From contig JAICRZ010000005.1 in the NCBI GenBank assembly GCA_025937135.1, positions 1-43,635 on the forward strand: a stretch of 43,635 nt of DNA. Reading direction: 5' to 3'. The stretch comes from Thermoleophilaceae bacterium (GTDB lineage: Bacteria > Actinomycetota > Thermoleophilia > Solirubrobacterales > Thermoleophilaceae). Of this stretch, positions 11,596 through 21,161 are shown piece by piece; position 1 is the first letter of the stretch, and each line of letters opens with the position of its first letter. A program made the translations under genes and the position numbers. The notes below the pieces were generated by a model, which ran no database searches, was not told where the DNA came from, and saw only the letters and a list, made by a program, of their open reading frames with translations.

Positions 11596-11693
11596 GAGGC
11601 CGTACTAACCGATCACTCGCGCTCCGGAAACGCTTCGACGTGCCGATTCTCATGGCGTACGGCGGTACCCGCACGTACCTTGATCCTGTTCAA

Positions 11694-14144
11694 ATGGCGT
11701 TGAGACTGACTTCCGCAGCGGCTGTGGCCCTCTCGGCCTGCGTGTGGGCGTGCTCGCCCGCCGCCGCGGCCACGCTCGACTCCGTCGGCCGCGCCCCCGC
11801 GCCACCGCCCGGCGCGACCGATGCGGGCGCCCTCGACCCGTCCACGCAGCTCCACCTCGACGTGGTGCTGGCTCCGCGTGACCCCGCCGCCCTGGCGAGC
11901 TTCATCGAGGCCTTGTCGGACCCGTCCTCGCCGCAGTACCGGCACTACCTCGCGCGCGGCCAGTTCGCCGAGGAGTTCGGCGCGACCCCCGCCACGATCG
12001 CCGCGGTCCGCGCCTCGCTGCGCCGCGCCGGGCTCGATCCCGGCGCGCCGTCCGCCGGCGGGCTGACGGTCCCCGTCGACACGACGGCGGCGCGCGCCCG
12101 CACCGCCCTCCATGTGAGCTTCAAGCGGCTTCGCCTCAAATCCGGCCGAGTTGCGTTCGCCAACACGTCGGCGCCGCAGCTCCCGCCGGACGCCGCGCGG
12201 GACGTGCGAGCTATATCCGGGCTCGACAATCTCGCGCGCCCGCAGCCGCATCTCGTACAGGCGCGGCCACATGCCGCGTCGGTCCAGCCGCACGCCACAG
12301 CGCCTCAGGCATGCAGCGGCGCGTCGACCGCCGCCTCGGTGAACGGCGCCTACCTGCCCGCCCAATTCGCCACCGCGTACGGCCTCGACGGGCTCTACGG
12401 AATCGGCGCCCAGGGCGCCGGCGTGACCGTCGCCCTCTACGAGCTCGAGCCGAACAGCAGCACCGACATCAGTACCTACCAGTCGTGCTTCGGCACGAGC
12501 GCGCAGATCAGCGTGGTCAACGTGGACGGGGGCGCCGGAAGCGGCTTTGGCCAGGGCGAGGCGGCGCTCGACATCGAGGGCGTGATCGGGCTCGCGCCGC
12601 AGGCGTCGATCACCGTGTACCGCGGCCCGAACAACAACCTGGGCGGGCCGCTGCACACCTACCAGCAGATCGTCGCCGACGACTCCGCCCAGGTCATCTC
12701 GACCTCGTGGGGGCTCTGTGACCCGCAGATGTCGAGCTCCGAGGCGACCGCGGAGAACACCGCCTTCCAGCAGGCCGCCACGCAGGGCCAGACGATCGTC
12801 GCGGCGTCGGGCGACGATGGCTCCGAGGACTGCGGGACGAACGCCCTCGCCGTCGACGACCCCGCGAGCCAGCCCTACGTGACGGGAGTGGGGGGAACCA
12901 CGCTCACGACGAGCCCCAGCCGGACGGAGACCGTGTGGAACAACACGACCGGCGCGGGCGGCGGTGGGCGCTCGTCGCGCTGGGGTCTGCCTGGCTATCA
13001 GTCCGCGCTGCTGACCGGCACCGGACGCGGCGTGCCGGACGTCTCGGCCGACGCCGACCCGGACACCGGCTACGTCGTCCGCTACCACGGCAGTTGGACC
13101 GCGTTCGGCGGCACGAGCGCGGCCGCTCCGCTGTGGGGCGCGATCCTGGCGGCGGCCGACTCGAGCGGGCTCGGCACATGCGCGCCGTCGACGCCCGTGG
13201 GCTTCGTCAACCCCGCCCTCTACACGATCGCCGCCGGTACGGGCTACGCCGCCGCGTTCAACGACGTGACGGGCGGTGACAACGACTTCACGGGGACCAA
13301 CAGCGGCAACTACGCGGCGGGCACCGGCTACGACCTGGCCAGCGGGCTCGGCACCCCGATCGCATACACATCGCCGACAGCGGGCCTGGTGCCCGCGCTC
13401 TGCGGTGGCGGCCCATCGGCGCCGACCATCACCAGCGTCTCGCCCGCGAGCGGGCCGGAGGCGGGCGGCGGGACGGTGACGATCAACGGCACCGACCTCG
13501 ACGTCGCGCCCGTTTCGGTGACCTTCGGCGCGACGGCTGCCACCGCCGTGCAGCAGATCGACAACACGCGCATCACCGTCACGGCGCCGCCGGGGACCGG
13601 CACCGTCCCGATCACGGTGTCCGACACGTACGGGACGAGCGCGCCGGCGGACTACACCTACGCGAACGCGCCGAACCCGACCGCCCCCGCGGGGTCGACC
13701 GGCAACCCCGGCACGCCCACGCCCGGCACGTCCACTACCGGGACCACGCCGCCCTCCCCGACGGGCCCGACCCTGACCGCGGCGGCAACCCGCGCGCTGT
13801 CGGTCAGCGTCTTCGGTGCGCTCCACTTCCGGCTGCGCGGCTCGATCGCCGCGAGCAGCGTGCACGTCGGCCGTGACGCGCGCGGACGCGTGATCAGCAT
13901 CCACGGGATCGCCCGGGTCGGCGCCACCGCCACGATCAGCTACTCGCTGCACAAGCACGGGCGCCACTGGACCGGCGCGGTGCGCGTGACCGACCGACGC
14001 GCGCACTTCTCGCGCCGCTTCGCAGCCGCGGCCACGGCGCCCACGCTCGCGGCAAGCGGCCGGGTCAGCATGACTGCGCGAGCGCACGTCCACGGCCGCC
14101 GCGCGACGCTGCGGCTCACGCTCGGCCGCCCGTCCGCGGGCTGA
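11694..14144 (+). CDS. Secreted sedolisin (S53 family) serine-carboxyl protease with IPT/TIG domain
   Basis: 816 residues from ATG 11694, which gives a signal peptide (MALRLTSAAAVALSACVWA, cleavage near AAA). Next come a pro-kumamolisin activation domain (about 35-175: SPQYRHYLARGQFAEEFG) and the catalytic domain (about 205-570). The Glu/Asp pair lies in GEAALDIEGVIG (near residues 289 and 293), the oxyanion region in STSWGLCDP and the Ser in GGTSAAAPLWG (near 475), followed by the calcium-site end segment GTGYDLASGLGTP. An IPT/TIG domain (PTITSVSPASGPEAGGG), a Pro/Thr/Gly linker and a beta-rich C-terminal domain complete it. Sedolisins work extracellularly at acid pH after self-removal of the pro-domain. 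Confidence 0.93.
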   Translation: MALRLTSAAAVALSACVWACSPAAAATLDSVGRAPAPPPGATDAGALDPSTQLHLDVVLAPRDPAALASFIEALSDPSSPQYRHYLARGQFAEEFGATPATIAAVRASLRRAGLDPGAPSAGGLTVPVDTTAARARTALHVSFKRLRLKSGRVAFANTSAPQLPPDAARDVRAISGLDNLARPQPHLVQARPHAASVQPHATAPQACSGASTAASVNGAYLPAQFATAYGLDGLYGIGAQGAGVTVALYELEPNSSTDISTYQSCFGTSAQISVVNVDGGAGSGFGQGEAALDIEGVIGLAPQASITVYRGPNNNLGGPLHTYQQIVADDSAQVISTSWGLCDPQMSSSEATAENTAFQQAATQGQTIVAASGDDGSEDCGTNALAVDDPASQPYVTGVGGTTLTTSPSRTETVWNNTTGAGGGGRSSRWGLPGYQSALLTGTGRGVPDVSADADPDTGYVVRYHGSWTAFGGTSAAAPLWGAILAAADSSGLGTCAPSTPVGFVNPALYTIAAGTGYAAAFNDVTGGDNDFTGTNSGNYAAGTGYDLASGLGTPIAYTSPTAGLVPALCGGGPSAPTITSVSPASGPEAGGGTVTINGTDLDVAPVSVTFGATAATAVQQIDNTRITVTAPPGTGTVPITVSDTYGTSAPADYTYANAPNPTAPAGSTGNPGTPTPGTSTTGTTPPSPTGPTLTAAATRALSVSVFGALHFRLRGSIAASSVHVGRDARGRVISIHGIARVGATATISYSLHKHGRHWTGAVRVTDRRAHFSRRFAAAATAPTLAASGRVSMTARAHVHGRRATLRLTLGRPSAG

Positions 14145-14290: not shown

Positions 14291-14881
14291 ATGAATCACA
14301 GGGGACTCATCCGCCATCCGAGGCGGACGATCGCGGCACTCGCAACCGGGCTCGCGGCGGCAGGCGTCGCGGTCGGATCGGGTGCCGACTTCTCGTCGCA
14401 GGCGGCGAATCCGGCGAACACGTTCACGGCCGGAACGCTCACGATGGACAACAGCCGGGCCGGCGCCGCGATCTTCACGCCGGACGACATGAAGCCGGGC
14501 GCGCCGGCGCAGACCGGCACGGTCGACATCGCCAACACCGGCTCGCTGCCCGGCGTCTTCTCACTCACGCGTGACTCGCTCGCGAGCAGTGACGGCGGCG
14601 CGTCGAACCCGACGCCGTTCGCCGGCAAGGTGAACCTGACGATCGTGGACTGCGGCGCGTTCGCCGCGGGCGCCGCGCCGGCCTGTGGCGATGCAGGCGA
14701 CAGCACCGTCTACAGCGGCACGCTGGCCGCCGAGGACGACGACCACGCGCTCGGGACGTTCGCCGCCGGCGAGAAGCACCGTTACCAGTTCGCGGCCCAG
14801 CTCGACTCGTCGGCCGGCAATGAGTATCAGGGCGACTCGTCGAGCGCACGCTACGTCTGGAACAGCGTCCAGACGCCGTGA
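14291..14881 (+). CDS. TasA/camelysin-like secreted fibre protein
   Basis: 196 residues from ATG 14291 with GGGGGA just upstream. After a basic start (MNHRGLIRHPRRT) comes a hydrophobic signal segment (IAALATGLAAAGVAVGSG). The mature part opens with ADFSSQAANPANTFTAGTLTM and reaches DDMKPGAPAQTGTVDIANTGSLPGVFSL, the N-terminal pattern of TasA/CalY (camelysin, M73) proteins: a short strand, F-x-A-G-T-L, then MKPG and a beta-sandwich edge. In Bacillus such proteins are cut by SipW and form extracellular fibres. The stop overlaps the GTG start of the SipW-like peptidase, strong support for a common function. Two Cys in the mature part could form a disulfide. Confidence 0.82.
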   Translation: MNHRGLIRHPRRTIAALATGLAAAGVAVGSGADFSSQAANPANTFTAGTLTMDNSRAGAAIFTPDDMKPGAPAQTGTVDIANTGSLPGVFSLTRDSLASSDGGASNPTPFAGKVNLTIVDCGAFAAGAAPACGDAGDSTVYSGTLAAEDDDHALGTFAAGEKHRYQFAAQLDSSAGNEYQGDSSSARYVWNSVQTP

Positions 14882-15369
14882 GGATGCTGGCCACAATCGG
14901 CCTGGCCGCGCTCGTCGCGGCCGGGGCGCTGATGTTCGTCCCGGCGCTGCTCGGCTACGAGCGCTACGTGATCACCGGCGGCTCGATGGCCGGCTCGCTC
15001 CCGAAGGGGTCGATCGCCTACGAGAAGCGCGTGCCGGTCGACCAACTGCGCGCAGGCGACGTGATCACCTACACCCCGCCGGCGTCCTCGGGCGCCGGCG
15101 GGAAGGTGACGCACCGGATCGCATGGATCGGCCGTGGCCGCGTGCTCCGGACGAAGGGCGACGCGAACGCCTCGCGCGACCCGTGGCGGTTCACGCTGCG
15201 CCGCGCGACTCAGCCCGTGGTGCGTTTCCACGTGCCGCTGGCGGGCTACGTGCTCGCGGCGCTGGCGCTGCGCCTGGTGCGGATGCTCGTGATCGGGCTG
15301 CCCGCGCTCGCGATCGCGCTCGTGAGCTTCGCCCGCGTCTGGCGCGACGTCCGGCCGGTGGCGGCCTGA
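14878..15369 (+). CDS. SipW-type signal peptidase I
   Basis: 163 residues from GTG 14878, overlapping the previous stop (GTGA). An N-terminal membrane segment (TIGLAALVAAGALMFVPALLG) precedes the catalytic Ser motif GGSMAGSLPKGS (Ser about 36). Box D-like GDVITYTPP is followed by KVTHRIAW (His about 79) and TKGDANASRDPW. Having His at the position where standard bacterial type I peptidases carry Lys marks the archaeal/eukaryotic-like ER or SipW type. A second hydrophobic stretch (VPLAGYVLAALALRLVRMLVIGLPALAIAL in pieces) anchors the C-terminus. It likely processes the two TasA-like proteins of the operon. Confidence 0.88.
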   Translation: MRMLATIGLAALVAAGALMFVPALLGYERYVITGGSMAGSLPKGSIAYEKRVPVDQLRAGDVITYTPPASSGAGGKVTHRIAWIGRGRVLRTKGDANASRDPWRFTLRRATQPVVRFHVPLAGYVLAALALRLVRMLVIGLPALAIALVSFARVWRDVRPVAA

Positions 15370-17801
15370 TGCGCGTGCCGCTGACATTGCTCACGGCGCT
15401 GTGCGTGCTCGCTTGCGCGCTGCCCGCGGGCGCCCGCGCCGGCACCTACACGACCGTCTCGTGCGGCGATCCCGACACGCACCAGATGACCGGGCGCAGC
15501 GGCTTCCCGCCGGGCTGGGCCTTCACCGAGTACCAGCCGGGGTCCGGCAACTGGTCGACCTTCGCGTCGTGCGGGAGCTGGGGCGGCGGCTTCGGCCTCA
15601 GGACCAACCCGATCGGCGGCCGCGTGCCGTACCCGCAGTGGGGTCGGATCTACTTCAGCCCGCCGGCCGACACCGGTGTGGCGGGAGTGCGCGTGGCCCG
15701 CGCGTTCCGCCGTCCGTACCCGGCGCCGTACGTGGTGCCGCTGCTCGCGACGAGCCCTGCGGATTGGTGCCACACCTACTGGGACGGTTGCAGCGTCGGC
15801 AATCTCGGCAACGGCAGCGATCCGGCGAACCTTGCCGAGCTGGGCGGCTCGGCGTGGTTCCAGCTCTACTGCGACGGCAGCCAGGGCTGCCCGCGCGACG
15901 GGTTGGCGGCCTGGCAGGTCTTCGGCGCCAGGATCACGCTGAGCGACGGCCATGCACCGAGCTTCGCGGGCGCGCCGACCGGCCTGCCGTCCGCCGCCGG
16001 GATCGGCGGGAGCCCAACCGTCGAGATCGGCGGCAGCGACCGCGGCGGCGGCCTGCTCAGGGCGGAGGTGCTCGCCGACGGCCAGGTGCTCGGGAGCGCA
16101 TCGTTCGACTCGAACGGGCACTGCGACACGTCGTTCCACACCGACCTCGTCCCGTGTCCGCTCACTGGTAGCCGCCCGCTCGGCGCCGACACGACGAAGG
16201 TCGCCGACGGCGACCACGCGATCAGCGCGCGCCTCACCGACGTCTCCGGCAACACGACGAGCTACGCGCTCGGGACGAAGACGATCGACAATCATGCGCC
16301 CGGGCCGGTGGCGCCATTGGTGGTCGGCGGCGACGGCTGGCGCGGCGCGAATGCCTTCGACGTCGCCTGGGAGGCCTCCGCCGCGGACCACGGCTCGGCG
16401 ATCGCCGCGGCGCACTACCGGCTCTGCTCCACGGATGCCAAGCCCACGTGCACCACGGGGAAGCAGACCGGCGCCGGCATCACGCGGCTCACCGGGCTGA
16501 GCGTGCCCGCGAGCGGCGACTACACGTTGACCGTCTGGCTCGAGGACGCCGCGGGGAACGCCGACGCGGCCGGCGCGTCGGCCCCCGTGCACCTGCGCTA
16601 CGACGCCGATCCCGGGGCGCCGCAGATGCAGTCGCGAAGCGCGTGGCTGAACGCGCAGGAGGCGAGCGTGCATGCCGTGGCGATCGCCGCGCCCGCCGGC
16701 GGCGCGTCCGTGGCGGGGTACGCCGTCAGCTACGACGGCAGCGATCCCGGAACGACGATCGACGCGCCGGCGGACGCTCACGGCGATGCCGTCTACGGGC
16801 CACCGCCCGGCGGCTGGCCCGACGGGCGTGTCCGGGTCAAGGCGCGCGCGATCGCCGCCACGGGCGTGGCGTCGGCGCAGGTCGGCCTCGCGACGATCCG
16901 GGTGGACTCGACCGCGCCGGAGCTGACCGTCGCCGGCGCAGGCACGCCGAGCGACTGGCGGCCGCCGCCCGTCGTCCTGACGCTCGGCGCGCGCGACGCG
17001 GGGTCGGGCATGGGCGCCGCCGACGCCGGGCAAGCCGTCGAGTCGGGCGACTACGTCGCGTACTCGCTCGACGGGCAGCCGCTGCGCAGGGTCGGCGGCG
17101 ACGAGGCGACCGTCGCCGTCTCCGGCGTCGGCGCTCATGCGCTCACCTTCCGCGCCTACGACGCCGCGGGCAACGTCTCCGCGGACCGTACCGTCGCGTT
17201 CCTGATCGGGCGCCCGCAGACGGCGCTCGCGGAGCCGAACTTCGGCTTCTGGGATCGCAGCGCCAGCCCGGGCACCACATTCACGGCCGCGCCCAGCTTC
17301 GGCAACACCTGCCCCGGCGAGCTGGCGCTCACGCCCGCGCGCGACACCTACGTGGACGAGGCGCAGCCCGACGCGGCGTTCGGCTCGGCCACCGGGCTGG
17401 TGGTGCGCTCGGCGCCGGCGGGAAACGCCCGGACGCTGCTCGCCTTCGATCTGCCCGCGCCCGGTGGGTGCACCATCACTTCCGCGGAGCTGCGCGTGCA
17501 CGCGAGCGCGACCACGGCCGGGCGAGCGATCCAGGCGTTCCGCGCGGGCGGAAGCTGGGACGGCGATACCAGCTGGGCCACGCGCCCCGGCGCCGTCGGC
17601 GCTCCGGCCGCCGCCGGCGCAGCGGCCGGTGGGCTGAGCTTCGACGTCACCGAGCAGGTCCGCGGCATCTACGCCCACGGCGACAACGGCCTGATGCTGC
17701 GCGACTCGAGCGACGGCGCCGCACCGACGGCGGGCCAGGCCTACGGCTCGAGCGAGAGCGTGCCCGGCGAGCGTCCAGAGCTGATCGTGAGATACGGATG
17801 A
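15369..17801 (+). CDS. Large secreted Ig-like/DNRLRE-domain surface protein
   Basis: 810 residues; the start ATG shares a base with the SipW stop (TGATG). Signal peptide MRVPLTLLTALCVLACALPAGARA. The N-terminal domain (about 25-200, GTYTTVSCGDPDTHQM) has several Cys and a jelly-roll-like pattern (FGARITLSDGHAPSF). The middle has at least three Ig-like or Big-type repeats marked by VSGNTTSYALGTKTID, WLEDAAGNADAAG and AYDAAGNVSADRTV. The C-terminal 170 residues match a DNRLRE-type domain: DTYVDEAQPDAAFGS, LLAFDLPAP, SWATRPGAVG. There is no sorting signal or C-terminal membrane helix. Its place between SipW and a second TasA-like gene suggests a fibre-associated adhesin or matrix protein. Confidence 0.8.
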   Translation: MRVPLTLLTALCVLACALPAGARAGTYTTVSCGDPDTHQMTGRSGFPPGWAFTEYQPGSGNWSTFASCGSWGGGFGLRTNPIGGRVPYPQWGRIYFSPPADTGVAGVRVARAFRRPYPAPYVVPLLATSPADWCHTYWDGCSVGNLGNGSDPANLAELGGSAWFQLYCDGSQGCPRDGLAAWQVFGARITLSDGHAPSFAGAPTGLPSAAGIGGSPTVEIGGSDRGGGLLRAEVLADGQVLGSASFDSNGHCDTSFHTDLVPCPLTGSRPLGADTTKVADGDHAISARLTDVSGNTTSYALGTKTIDNHAPGPVAPLVVGGDGWRGANAFDVAWEASAADHGSAIAAAHYRLCSTDAKPTCTTGKQTGAGITRLTGLSVPASGDYTLTVWLEDAAGNADAAGASAPVHLRYDADPGAPQMQSRSAWLNAQEASVHAVAIAAPAGGASVAGYAVSYDGSDPGTTIDAPADAHGDAVYGPPPGGWPDGRVRVKARAIAATGVASAQVGLATIRVDSTAPELTVAGAGTPSDWRPPPVVLTLGARDAGSGMGAADAGQAVESGDYVAYSLDGQPLRRVGGDEATVAVSGVGAHALTFRAYDAAGNVSADRTVAFLIGRPQTALAEPNFGFWDRSASPGTTFTAAPSFGNTCPGELALTPARDTYVDEAQPDAAFGSATGLVVRSAPAGNARTLLAFDLPAPGGCTITSAELRVHASATTAGRAIQAFRAGGSWDGDTSWATRPGAVGAPAAAGAAAGGLSFDVTEQVRGIYAHGDNGLMLRDSSDGAAPTAGQAYGSSESVPGERPELIVRYG

Positions 17802-18673
17802 TCGCCGCGCGCCTGGCCGTTCCGGTGGCCGCGCTCGGCGTGGCGGCGTTCACGGCCCTGTCGGGGGAGCGCCCACGCGAACTGCGCCTCTCCGCCGCGC
17901 GCGGAGCGCTCGAGCTCGTGAACTCGCGCGCCGGCCAGGCCGCCTTCGCCGCAGGCAACATGAAACCCGGCGACGCGACGGCCGGCACCCTCAGCGTGAC
18001 CAACCGCGGCAGCTCGGAGGCCCGCGTGTTCCTGCGCAGCTCACCGCCCGGGGGGCGCGGTGCGCTCGCCGACGTGCTCCAGGTGCGCATCGCCGAGGGC
18101 CGCGCGACGGTCGCGTCCGGCACCCTCGGCGAGGTGGCGGGCTGCCACGACCTCGGCATGCTCGCGTCCGGCTCGACGCGCACGTTCCGCTTCAGCGCGA
18201 GCTGGCCGGCCGGCGATCGCGACAACGCCTACTCCGGCTCGACCGCGCGGGCGGACGAGCAATGGTTCGCCAACGCCGACGGCGGCGGCTGCGTGGCCGG
18301 CGAGCCGCAGGTGGCGGACGCGCCGGAGCTGCCGCCGAACGCGCGCCTCGTGGTCTCCCACCGCCGCGTCCGGCTCGTGCGCGGCCGCGCGAATCTGCGC
18401 GTGCGCTGCATCGGCGAGCGCAACGGGATCTGCGCGGGGACGATTCACCTGCGGCCGCGCAACGGCCAGGCGAGTCGCGTCACCACGGCGGCGGGCCGGG
18501 CGCGCATCCGTTTCGAGGTGCCGGCCGGCCGCGTTCGCGACGTGTACCTGCGCGTCCCCCCGGCCTCGCGGGCCACGCTGAGGCGCCGCCGCAAGGCGGT
18601 CGCGCTCGCGGTCATCGAGCCGGCGCGCCCGACGCCGACGCGGGTTTCGCGGCTGCTCACCCTTATCCGATGA
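17798..18673 (+). CDS. Second TasA-like secreted protein with basic C-terminal domain
   Basis: 291 residues, overlapping the preceding stop (ATGA). An N-terminal hydrophobic segment (RLAVPVAALGVAAFTALSG) is followed by LVNSRAGQAAFAAGNMKPGDATAGTLSVTNRGSSEARVFL, which parallels the first TasA-like protein (NSRAG, F-A-A-G, MKPG, a shared strand). The first protein's MDNSRAGAAIF and this one's LVNSRAGQAAF suggest duplication. From about residue 190 an extra, very Arg-rich beta domain (VVSHRRVRLVRGRANLRVRC, RRRRKAVALAVIE) follows, absent from the first. It might bind the acidic cell surface or a polymer. It is the last gene of the operon. Confidence 0.75.
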   Translation: MIAARLAVPVAALGVAAFTALSGERPRELRLSAARGALELVNSRAGQAAFAAGNMKPGDATAGTLSVTNRGSSEARVFLRSSPPGGRGALADVLQVRIAEGRATVASGTLGEVAGCHDLGMLASGSTRTFRFSASWPAGDRDNAYSGSTARADEQWFANADGGGCVAGEPQVADAPELPPNARLVVSHRRVRLVRGRANLRVRCIGERNGICAGTIHLRPRNGQASRVTTAAGRARIRFEVPAGRVRDVYLRVPPASRATLRRRRKAVALAVIEPARPTPTRVSRLLTLIR

Positions 18674-19073: not shown

Positions 19074-19673
19074 TTGGGCGGACAAGGACGTTGGCTCCGG
19101 GCGCGCAGTGCGCTGACGGTGCTCGCACGGATGATGGACCTGAGCGACCCCGCTACGTCGGAGCACGCCAGGGACGTGGCCGAGCTCGTGCCGCGCGTCG
19201 GCCGACTGGTCGGCATCGCCGACGAGGAGCTCGAGGCCCTCGAGCTGGCCGCGCGCTTCCACGACATCGGCAAGGTCGCCGTGCCCGACGAGCTGCTCAT
19301 GAAGCCCGGCCCGCTGGACGACGACGAACGCCGCGTCATGGCGTGCCACGTGGAGTGGGGGGCGGAGCTGTTGCGCCACCTGCCGGGTTGCGAGCCGATC
19401 GCGCGCTTCGTGCGCCACCATCACGAGCGCTACGACGGTTGCGGCTATCCGGACGGGCTGCGCGGCGAGGAGATCCCGCTGGCGAGCCGTGTGATCGCCG
19501 CCTGTGACGCCTACGGCGCGATGATGTCGGACCGTCCCTACCGGCCGGCGCTCGACCCCGACCAGGCCACCCTCGAGTTGGTGCAGGGCTCGGGCACGCA
19601 GTTCGACCCGCGCGCCGTCGCCGCCGTCCTCGAGGCCGTGGACGCTGCCGAGCACCAGTCCGCGCAGGGCTGA
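19074..19673 (+). CDS. HD-GYP-type phosphohydrolase domain protein
   Basis: 199 residues from TTG 19074, preceded by GAGGGAGAGG. It is essentially one HD domain with HD-GYP features: SEHARDVAELVPRVG, RFHDIGKVAVPDELLMKPGPL, HHHERYDGCGYPDGLRGEEIPLASRVIAACDAYGAMMSDRPYR (read in pieces). The H-H-E and G-Y-P-x-G-L elements match c-di-GMP phosphodiesterases of the HD-GYP class. It lacks a receiver, GAF or other sensory domain, so how it is controlled is unclear. The C-terminus is complete (TQFDPRAVAAVLEAV). It would act in the cytoplasm on c-di-GMP or a related cyclic nucleotide. Confidence 0.85.
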   Translation: MGGQGRWLRARSALTVLARMMDLSDPATSEHARDVAELVPRVGRLVGIADEELEALELAARFHDIGKVAVPDELLMKPGPLDDDERRVMACHVEWGAELLRHLPGCEPIARFVRHHHERYDGCGYPDGLRGEEIPLASRVIAACDAYGAMMSDRPYRPALDPDQATLELVQGSGTQFDPRAVAAVLEAVDAAEHQSAQG

Positions 19674-19674
19674 C

Positions 19675-19709
19675 CCCCTACAAAGAGGCTTTGTTTCGCC
19701 TCTAAGGGG
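19675..19709 (+). terminator. Hairpin between the HD-GYP gene and the sigma-fusion gene
   Basis: AGAGGC-TTTGTTTC-GCCTCT forms a 6-bp stem, flanked by CCCCT and AGGGG that can extend it over an internal bulge. It starts 2 bp after the HD-GYP stop. There is no T-run, but the position suits a terminator. Confidence 0.5.
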
Positions 19710-19736
19710 TACACCGATCGCGGGAGAGGGAAGGCA

Positions 19737-21161
19737 ATGACGCCACTGGTCGAGTCACAGACGACTGAAGCTGCGGCCGCCGCGCCGGTGATACCGATGC
19801 TGCGCCCCGGCTTCCCCGGCGCCGCGCTGAGGATGATGAGCGACGAGCGCCTGGCCCGGCTCGTGGCGGGCGGCGATCGCGCCGCGTTCGGTGTCGTCTT
19901 CGCGCGCTACCACCAGGAGCTCTACCGCTACTGCCTCTCGCTGCTGCACGACCGCGAGGATGCCGCCGACGCGCTCCAGGGCACGATGCTCCGAGCGCTG
20001 CGCGCGCTCGAGGGGGAGACCCGCGCGATCGCGCTGCGGCCGTGGCTCTACCGCGTCGCTCACAACGAGGCGATCGACCTCCTGCGCCACCGCCCGCCGC
20101 GCGCCGACGACCGCGCCGAGCTGCACGCCGCACTCGACTGGGGCGTCGAGGCGGGAGTGGAGGCACGCGCGCGGCTGCGACAGCTTCTCCTGGATCTGCG
20201 CGAGCTGCCCGAGCGCCAGCGTGGCGCGCTCGTCATGCGTGAGCTCGCGGGGCTCGACTACGCGCAGATCGCCGACGCCCTCGAGACCTCGCCGGCCGCG
20301 GCCAAGCAGTCGGTCTACGAGGCGCGGCGGACGCTGTTCGAGCTGGCGAGTGGCCGCGACCTCGACTGCGAGGGAATCCGCAGCCGCCTGTCCGAGGGCG
20401 ACCGTCGTTCCACGCGCGCGCGGGCGGTGCGCGCGCATCTGCGCGCCTGTTCCGGCTGCCGCGACTTCCACGAGCTCACGGCGTCGCGGCGCTCCGCGCT
20501 CTCGGGGCTCATCCCCGGCCTCCCGGCGGGCGCGGCGGCCGAGCTGCTCGGCGGCTTCGGCTCGGCGGGCGCCGGGTCGGTGCTCGCGGTCAAGTCACTC
20601 GCCGCGCTCGCGCTCGCCGTGGCGGCGGGAGCGGGGGCGACCCAGGCACTGCCGCATGCCACCGCCGGCGACGTTCCGCATCGAGCGCCGCACGCGGCCA
20701 CCTCGAGCAGTGCCGCGCGGCTGCCCGCCGCGCCGCGACAGCACCGGAGCGTCCCGGCCGCGCGTCATTCACATGCGCGAGCGCCCGCGCCTGCTGCTCA
20801 CCGGCACGCGCGGACTCGCCCGGACGAACGGACACCGACGCTCGCGGCACCCGCCACTCAGGCGACCGAGCCGAGGCCCGAGGCCCACCATGCGCACGGC
20901 CCGCCGGCTCGTACACCACACGCCGAGCATCAGCCCCAGGCACCCGCCGCAACGCCACCGCCGCCGGAGGACGACCAGGGCAACTCCGGCCGCGGCCCGA
21001 TCGCCGCCACCACGCAGGTCGTGGTGCCGCAGGTCCAGGCCCAGGTGCAGCAGGTCCAGAGCACGGTCGACACGACGGTCGCCCAGGTCCAGCAGGCGCT
21101 GCCCGTGCACACCCCGCCGCTGCCGCGGCTACCGCGGCTGCCGAAGCGCCGCGTGCGCTAA
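19737..21161 (+). CDS. ECF sigma factor fused to zinc-finger anti-sigma-like and membrane domains
   Basis: 474 residues from ATG 19737 (GGGAGAGGGAAGGCA upstream). Sigma region 2 is at about 35-105 (FARYHQELYRYCLSLLHDREDAADALQ, RPWLYRVAHNEAIDLLR). Region 4 is at about 155-200 (LPERQRGALVMRELAGLDYAQIADALETSPAAAKQSV, in pieces). It is followed directly by a ZAS-like zinc finger (VRAHLRACSGCRDFHEL, H-x3-C-x2-C), a hydrophobic segment (VLAVKSLAALALAVAAGAGA) and a Pro/His/Ala-rich tail to the end with VQAQVQQVQST. One polypeptide therefore joins a sigma factor with the parts usually found in a separate membrane anti-sigma factor. Confidence 0.87.
   Translation: MTPLVESQTTEAAAAAPVIPMLRPGFPGAALRMMSDERLARLVAGGDRAAFGVVFARYHQELYRYCLSLLHDREDAADALQGTMLRALRALEGETRAIALRPWLYRVAHNEAIDLLRHRPPRADDRAELHAALDWGVEAGVEARARLRQLLLDLRELPERQRGALVMRELAGLDYAQIADALETSPAAAKQSVYEARRTLFELASGRDLDCEGIRSRLSEGDRRSTRARAVRAHLRACSGCRDFHELTASRRSALSGLIPGLPAGAAAELLGGFGSAGAGSVLAVKSLAALALAVAAGAGATQALPHATAGDVPHRAPHAATSSSAARLPAAPRQHRSVPAARHSHARAPAPAAHRHARTRPDERTPTLAAPATQATEPRPEAHHAHGPPARTPHAEHQPQAPAATPPPPEDDQGNSGRGPIAATTQVVVPQVQAQVQQVQSTVDTTVAQVQQALPVHTPPLPRLPRLPKRRVR

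What the first reader, a model, noticed from the sequence alone, without database searches (positions are those of the whole stretch)
14291..18673. SipW/TasA-like operon with a large DNRLRE/Ig-like protein in an actinobacterium
Four genes overlap by 1-4 bp: TasA-like, SipW-type peptidase with Ser/His catalysis, an 810-residue Ig-like/DNRLRE protein and a second TasA-like protein with an Arg-rich C-terminal domain. In Bacillus SipW processes TasA and TapA to build biofilm fibres. The arrangement suggests a similar fibre system, with the large protein as a possible accessory and the second TasA-like protein as anchor or nucleator. The system is well described in Firmicutes and hardly studied in this lineage.
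Basis: partly seen in the sequence, partly recalled or inferred. Interest (0 to 1): 0.68.

Follow-up and report, generated by a model that had tools for sequence, protein, structure and literature searches.

The report
TasA-type fibre operon with relocated donor strand
This actinobacterium carries a compact four-gene operon related to the one Bacillus uses to build biofilm fibres, and its large sugar-binding protein has the fibre-joining peptide in the middle of the chain instead of at the front, which suggests how a fibre could be given a sticky end.

Summary
In detail: four co-oriented genes overlap by 4, 1 and 4 bp. They encode a TasA-like protein (TasA1), a SipW/S26B signal peptidase with invariant Ser36/His79/Asp95, an 810-residue Ig/DNRLRE protein (BIG) and a second TasA-domain protein (TasA2). 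TasA1 is a true TasA relative: its family profile finds only TasA significantly in the PDB, and its predicted structure matches the TasA fibre best. TasA2 is the same domain without the N-terminal donor segment, plus a strongly basic C-terminal domain. Similar operons recur in Thermoleophilia; related SipW loci occur in other Actinomycetota.

BIG has an ordinary Sec signal and carries that motif internally (residues 627-644), just before its carbohydrate-binding domain. The only same-genus relative ends exactly at the motif. No other signal-less copy of comparable score was found in about 2 million scanned positions. The motif thus persists without a secretion role, which fits a donor strand.

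Best reading: a donor-strand fibre with BIG as donor-only, TapA-like terminal adhesin, TasA1 as shaft and TasA2 as donor-less cap or base. Parts well supported; roles inferred.

The parts
14291..14881 (+). TasA1: TasA-like fibre subunit (196 aa) with SipW-type signal
   Evidence: A2 profile vs PDB: TasA 5of1 E 1.3e-5, 8aur E 1.8e-5, nothing else below 0.07; AF2 model pLDDT 78, pTM 0.73; Foldseek top hit is the TasA fibre 8aur E 5.2e-5
14387..14425 (+). N-terminal donor segment of TasA1 (D33-F45, DFSSQAANPANTF), directly after the hydrophobic signal
   Evidence: invariant F34, N40, N43 and G48 in 12 homologues; equivalent to the TasA N-terminal strand described in PMC9674648
14878..15369 (+). 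SipW-type (S26B) signal peptidase; Ser36 at 14983-14985, His79 at 15112-15114, Asp95 at 15160-15162
   Evidence: TIGR02228 above cut-off; S36/H79/D95 invariant in 16 homologues
15369..17801 (+). BIG: 810-aa secreted protein with an ordinary Sec-type signal (..GARA/GTYT), Ig-like/OmpL47 modules, internal donor-like motif and C-terminal CBM96/DNRLRE
   Evidence: residues 1-615 belong to a family with matches in 107 of 232 genomes of the order
17049..17207 (+). OmpL47-type domain of BIG (residues 561-613)
   Evidence: NF047446 49.4 bits, cut-off 40
17247..17300 (+). internal donor-like motif of BIG (residues 627-644, FWDRSASPGTTFTAAPSF)
   Evidence: 31.7 bits with a PSSM from 11 third-protein N-termini that excludes this genus; maximum over 2,500 shuffled proteins 13.8; only it and the same-genus copy score above 17.5 without a clear hydrophobic signal upstream, among 1.99 million positions
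17328..17792 (+). CBM96/DNRLRE carbohydrate-binding module of BIG (residues 654-808)
   Evidence: PF24517 66.9 bits, cut-off 26; NF033679 77.3 bits, cut-off 34
17798..18673 (+). TasA2: second TasA-domain protein (291 aa), N-terminal hydrophobic segment, no donor motif
   Evidence: hhalign A2 vs A4 99.8%, E 7.6e-29, aligned from TasA1 residue 43 onwards, after the donor segment; no motif in the window protein or the family members
18332..18670 (+). basic C-terminal domain of TasA2 (24% Arg, net +24)
   Evidence: predicted mostly beta, pLDDT about 60

Best explanation
The operon encodes a sortase-independent, donor-strand-linked surface or matrix fibre of the TasA type. SipW cuts the TasA1 signal just before Phe34, freeing an N-terminal segment that inserts into the groove of the next TasA1 subunit (the peptidase family and the subunit fold are supported by tests here; cleavage and insertion are inferred by homology). 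BIG is exported by the ordinary signal peptidase (inferred from its signal sequence). It carries the same segment between its Ig-like modules and its carbohydrate-binding domain, and has no recognisable TasA domain of its own. It therefore most likely plugs the open groove at one end of the fibre, as TapA is proposed to do in Bacillus, displaying a CBM96 module (inferred). TasA2 has the TasA domain but no donor segment, so it would accept the donor of the last TasA1 subunit and close the other end. Its N-terminal hydrophobic segment and basic C-terminal domain suggest that it holds this end at the membrane or wall (inferred).
For: TasA1: profile and fold matches to TasA, then to FimA and archaeal bundling pili, all donor-strand fibres. 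SipW: catalytic triad. Gene order: third proteins with an N-terminal SipW-type signal plus motif follow SipW in most Thermoleophilia loci. Donor-like motif in BIG: far above null. The same-genus third protein keeps the motif and stops exactly after it (39% identity with BIG residues 484-644). No motif was found in the loci of BIG N-module paralogues outside SipW operons (L055-L083). The likely parental layout, N-terminal motif plus C-terminal DNRLRE in a SipW operon, exists in same-family genome G029 (L084). The TasA2 family lacks the motif and aligns to TasA1 only after the donor segment. Precedent: TapA is a complete Ig fold plus a donor segment that starts TasA filaments (PMC10151520). The founding CBM96 member binds alginate (title and abstract of PMC9971899).
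Against: No fibre, processing or binding was observed. BIG's motif is tethered on both sides, whereas TasA and TapA donors have a free N-terminus, so insertion may be hindered. Relocation is seen in only two genomes of one genus, one of them without TasA2 in this operon. TasA2's model is weak and its fold search non-specific. The TasA2 grouping is not cleanly resolved in the tree. The hydrophobic segment of TasA2 could be a cleaved signal.
Confidence: 0.55

Rival explanations
1. A TasA-type fibre exists, but BIG's motif is a relic: the N-module gene fused in frame to an old SipW substrate (motif + DNRLRE), and the motif is now just a linker.
For: The layout motif + DNRLRE exists in G029, so fusion explains its origin. 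Only two genomes show it, too few for a selection test; 9 of 18 motif residues are identical between them.
Against: In G001 the DNRLRE domain is absent yet the motif is kept, with the stop codon right after it. Substitutions stay within the motif pattern and all three Phe are kept, while the linker before it differs in length and sequence.
Confidence: 0.25
2. Heteropolymer as in B. cereus: TasA1 and TasA2 co-assemble along one fibre and BIG is a chaperone-like assembly factor similar in role to CapP.
For: B. cereus has two TasA-family proteins (TasA and CalY) that co-assemble into heterofilaments, and CapP in the same system (PMC13082335). TasA2 has the subunit domain.
Against: TasA2 lacks the donor segment, so it could not continue a donor-strand chain. 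CapP is DUF4047 plus QKKV/AEE repeats, unlike BIG.
Confidence: 0.12
3. The TasA-like proteins are monomeric surface or secreted proteins and no fibre is made; BIG is a separate adhesin or a polysaccharide-processing helper.
For: TasA is also stable as a monomer (PMC9674648), and no polymerisation was shown here.
Against: Invariant donor-segment residues and retention of the motif in proteins without TasA domains are hard to explain without strand exchange.
Confidence: 0.08

Closest known systems
Bacillus subtilis tapA-sipW-tasA fibre operon
   Same: SipW-type peptidase with TasA-family subunit; a second protein combining Ig-like fold(s) with a donor-type segment (TapA vs BIG)
   Different: BIG is 810 aa with a Sec signal, motif after the Ig-like modules and a CBM96 domain; no TapA family match; extra donor-less TasA2; order tasA1-sipW-BIG-tasA2
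Bacillus cereus sipW-tasA-capP(bc_1280)-calY region
   Same: two TasA-family proteins plus SipW plus an accessory protein
   Different: accessory CapP is a DUF4047 protein with QKKV/AEE repeats (PMC13082335); TasA2 here lacks the donor segment
Archaeal bundling pili (Pyrobaculum calidifontis, 7ueg)
   Same: TasA-like donor-strand subunit fold; Foldseek match E 4.9e-3
   Different: distant; a homologue of BIG there was not examined
Chaperone-usher type 1 pili (FimA)
   Same: donor-strand completion; Foldseek matches 1.8e-4 to 1.9e-3; tip-shaft logic is analogous
   Different: different secretion and assembly pathway; no usher or chaperone in the operon

Membership tests
SipW / ER-type (S26B) signal peptidase | Ser-His-Asp catalytic set instead of Ser-Lys | tested here: met
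   S36, H79, D95 invariant in 16 homologues
SipW / ER-type (S26B) signal peptidase | curated model TIGR02228 above cut-off | tested here: met
   53.6 vs 51.85 bits
Bacillus SipW equivalog (NF046067) | score above curated cut-off | tested here: not met
   46 vs 190 bits: same superfamily, not the Bacillus equivalog
TasA/camelysin superfamily (TasA1) | sequence profile relation to TasA | tested here: met
   A2 profile vs PDB: 5of1 E 1.3e-5, 8aur E 1.8e-5; 11 of 12 members match PF12389 at E <= 0.1, the window member below the gathering score
TasA/camelysin superfamily (TasA1) | TasA-type beta-sandwich fold | tested here: met
   Foldseek best 8aur E 5.2e-5, TM 0.50
TasA/camelysin superfamily (TasA1) | polymerises by donor-strand exchange | not testable with these tools
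   needs electron microscopy; only the donor segment is shown
NCBIfam TasA equivalog NF046066 | score above cut-off | tested here: not met
   8 of 12 family members match at E <= 1, the window member does not
TasA/camelysin superfamily (TasA2) | TasA domain by profile | tested here: met
   hhalign with TasA1 family 99.8%, E 7.6e-29; TasA is the top PDB hit but weak, E 0.02
TasA/camelysin superfamily (TasA2) | TasA fold by structure comparison | tested here: inconclusive
   model pTM 0.46, generic two-domain hits
TasA fibre-forming subunit (TasA2) | N-terminal donor segment after the signal | tested here: not met
   no motif in the window protein or the 11 aligned family members
TapA | TapA family sequence match | tested here: not met
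   no TapA model among NCBIfam matches of BIG up to E 10; works like TapA at most
TapA | Ig-like fold plus donor segment complementing TasA | tested here: inconclusive
   both elements present by sequence; complementation untested
CBM96 / DNRLRE | domain score above curated cut-off | tested here: met
   PF24517 66.9 vs 26 bits; NF033679 77.3 vs 34 bits

The most novel reading that the evidence does not exclude
A tip-shaft-base pilus that needs neither sortase nor usher: BIG is a carbohydrate-binding tip joined by a donor strand moved from the N-terminus to inside (or the C-terminus of) an unrelated secreted Ig-like protein; TasA1 is the shaft; TasA2, an acceptor without a donor, is the wall- or membrane-held base. 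The donor segment would then be a transferable plug that can recruit a secreted protein to a TasA fibre.
Probability: 0.33. Interest if true: 0.72.

Novelty: new variant of a known kind. Interest (0 to 1): 0.52.

Why it matters
The short segment behind the SipW cut site has two possible roles, peptidase recognition and donor strand. BIG and its relative separate them: the segment is kept where no signal is cut. If it binds TasA1 there, that is evidence from natural sequences that it works as a portable plug, it explains how TasA-type fibres might get ends and adhesins, and it gives a starting system for fibres in Actinomycetota, where no experimental work on SipW/TasA was found in the open literature searched.

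Tried and rejected
TafA/TafE (NCBIfam fimbrial families) gave faint hits among family members; searches of 31 relatives found none and the controls were silent, so nothing can be concluded, and no paper on them was found. SipW cleavage at the internal BIG motif was considered and set aside, because no clear hydrophobic signal precedes it. A single origin of the TasA2 group was tested by tree: labels cluster (2 changes vs 8.3 shuffled) but one origin is not shown. The DNRLRE domain had no PDB sequence match by phmmer. The solitary SipW-like gene elsewhere in the genome (L052) has no TasA neighbour. No promoter or terminator by simple scan; the only Rfam hit in the window is a tRNA. The first attempt to collect relatives with a broad SipW alignment failed for lack of conserved stretches and was repeated with closer sequences. 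One alignment call and one script failed on wrong coordinates or start codons and were repeated.

Full report
What is there. Four genes on the + strand run 14291-14881, 14878-15369, 15369-17801 and 17798-18673, overlapping by 4, 1 and 4 bp. The window is contig C91 of a metagenome-assembled genome of about 3 Mb, 82% complete; the same-genus genome is a Thermoleophilaceae MAG (L092).

TasA1. Alone, it is only a weak camelysin match. A profile of 12 relatives matches TasA of Bacillus subtilis in the PDB (5of1 E 1.3e-5, 8aur E 1.8e-5), with nothing else below E 0.07. The AF2 model (pLDDT 78, pTM 0.73) has the cryo-EM TasA fibre as best fold match, E 5.2e-5, TM-score 0.50, followed by FimA pilins and then archaeal bundling pili, all fibres built by donor strands. 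F34, N40, N43 and G48, at and behind the presumed SipW cut site, are invariant. In TasA this segment is the strand that inserts into the next subunit (PMC9674648).

SipW. The peptidase belongs to the archaeal/ER-type signal peptidases (TIGR02228 above cut-off) with invariant Ser36, His79 and Asp95. It is not within the Bacillus SipW equivalog model (46 vs 190 bits). The genome has a second, solitary SipW-like gene, but no other TasA protein was found.

Conservation. 23 of 101 genomes (own plus 100 relatives) have a match at E <= 0.001. In Thermoleophilia the usual order is TasA1, SipW, a variable third protein, and often a TasA2-like fourth. Related SipW loci occur in Nocardioides, Microbacterium, Aeromicrobium, Terrabacter and others, and more distantly in Chloroflexi, Clostridia and archaea. 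That TasA homologues occur in various bacteria and archaea is already known (PMC10151520).

The third protein. In nearly all relatives examined it begins with a hydrophobic SipW-type signal and then the pattern F(S/T)xxxxNPGNxFxAAPDW/F. BIG does not. It has an ordinary Sec-type signal, and its residues 1-615 belong to a secreted Ig-like family with matches in 107 of 232 genomes of the order, far more widespread than SipW. The motif sits at residues 627-644, between an OmpL47 domain and the CBM96/DNRLRE domain. A scoring matrix built from 11 third-protein N-termini, leaving this genus out, gives it 31.7 bits; the maximum over 2,500 shuffled proteins is 13.8. In 1.99 million six-frame positions of the fetched loci, 85 hits exceed 17 bits. 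Leaving aside duplicate loci, the only ones lacking a clear hydrophobic signal upstream are BIG, the same-genus third protein, and one chance hit at 17.5 in an unlikely frame. No hit fell in the loci of BIG N-module paralogues outside SipW operons; those loci reach about 1.5 kb beyond each match.

The same-genus case. In G001 (L034) the third protein has the same kind of ectodomain, 39% identical over BIG residues 484-644, and ends ...PGFSDRATNGMSSFSAAPSF followed directly by the stop codon. The DNRLRE domain is absent, but the motif is kept with its three Phe. In the same-family genome G029 the third protein has the motif at its N-terminus and DNRLRE at its C-terminus (L084), the likely parent layout of BIG's C-terminal half. 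So an N-module gene probably fused to such a gene, losing the SipW signal and keeping the motif. Keeping the motif where no signal is cut argues that it does more than guide the peptidase. With two sequences this is suggestive, not proof.

TasA2. Its N-terminal part aligns with the TasA1 family at 99.8% probability, E 7.6e-29, starting at TasA1 residue 43, after the donor segment. None of the 12 aligned TasA2 proteins has the motif. They have an N-terminal hydrophobic stretch and variable C-terminal parts: basic domains in several, RTX repeats in one. The window's C-terminal domain carries net charge +24, against -11 for mature TasA1.

Mechanism. In a TasA fibre each subunit gives its N-terminal strand to the next one (PMC9674648), and TapA, an Ig fold with a donor segment, starts the chain (PMC10151520). 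On that logic BIG has a donor but no recognisable TasA domain, TasA1 has both, and TasA2 has the domain but no donor. BIG would close the end with an open groove and TasA2 the end with a free donor. BIG displays CBM96, a family whose founding member binds alginate (PMC9971899). Shown: homology, catalytic residues, gene order, motif positions. Inferred: fibre formation, end positions, anchoring and sugar binding. A weak point is that BIG's motif is tethered on both sides.

Verdict. A real TasA-type operon and a new variant through the relocated donor-like segment and the donor-less second TasA. Bench work in a laboratory strain would settle it.

Noticed in passing
L044, L045, L046, L047, L049, L050, L051, L086: Several distant-type Thermoleophilia SipW operons hold an additional small TasA-like protein without the donor motif between TasA1 and SipW, giving five-gene operons.
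   Followed up: partly
L037 about 6103 (minus-strand coordinates); L094 5602 and 7100: TasA1-type proteins contain an internal stretch resembling the donor motif (FKLSETNATNGFTAGSL, FSLTETSSTNTFTAANL); it might mimic the donor in the monomer.
   Followed up: no
L045:3738-4757: The fourth-gene TasA2-like protein ends in RTX calcium-binding repeats instead of a basic domain.
   Followed up: no
L041:3742-6156 (minus strand): The third protein of this SipW operon matches the thrombospondin-type-3 repeat protein MtsC model (E 2.2e-41, below its cut-off).
   Followed up: no
11640-14144 (+): A pro-kumamolisin (sedolisin) type secreted protease with a TIG domain lies directly upstream of the operon.
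   Followed up: no
19074-21161 (+): An HD_5-domain protein (possible cyclic-di-GMP hydrolase) and an ECF-type sigma factor with a long Ala/Pro/His-rich tail lie just downstream; a link to fibre regulation is untested.
   Followed up: no
G000:C239:6001-6435 (L052): A second, solitary SipW-like signal peptidase in the same genome without a TasA neighbour.
   Followed up: partly
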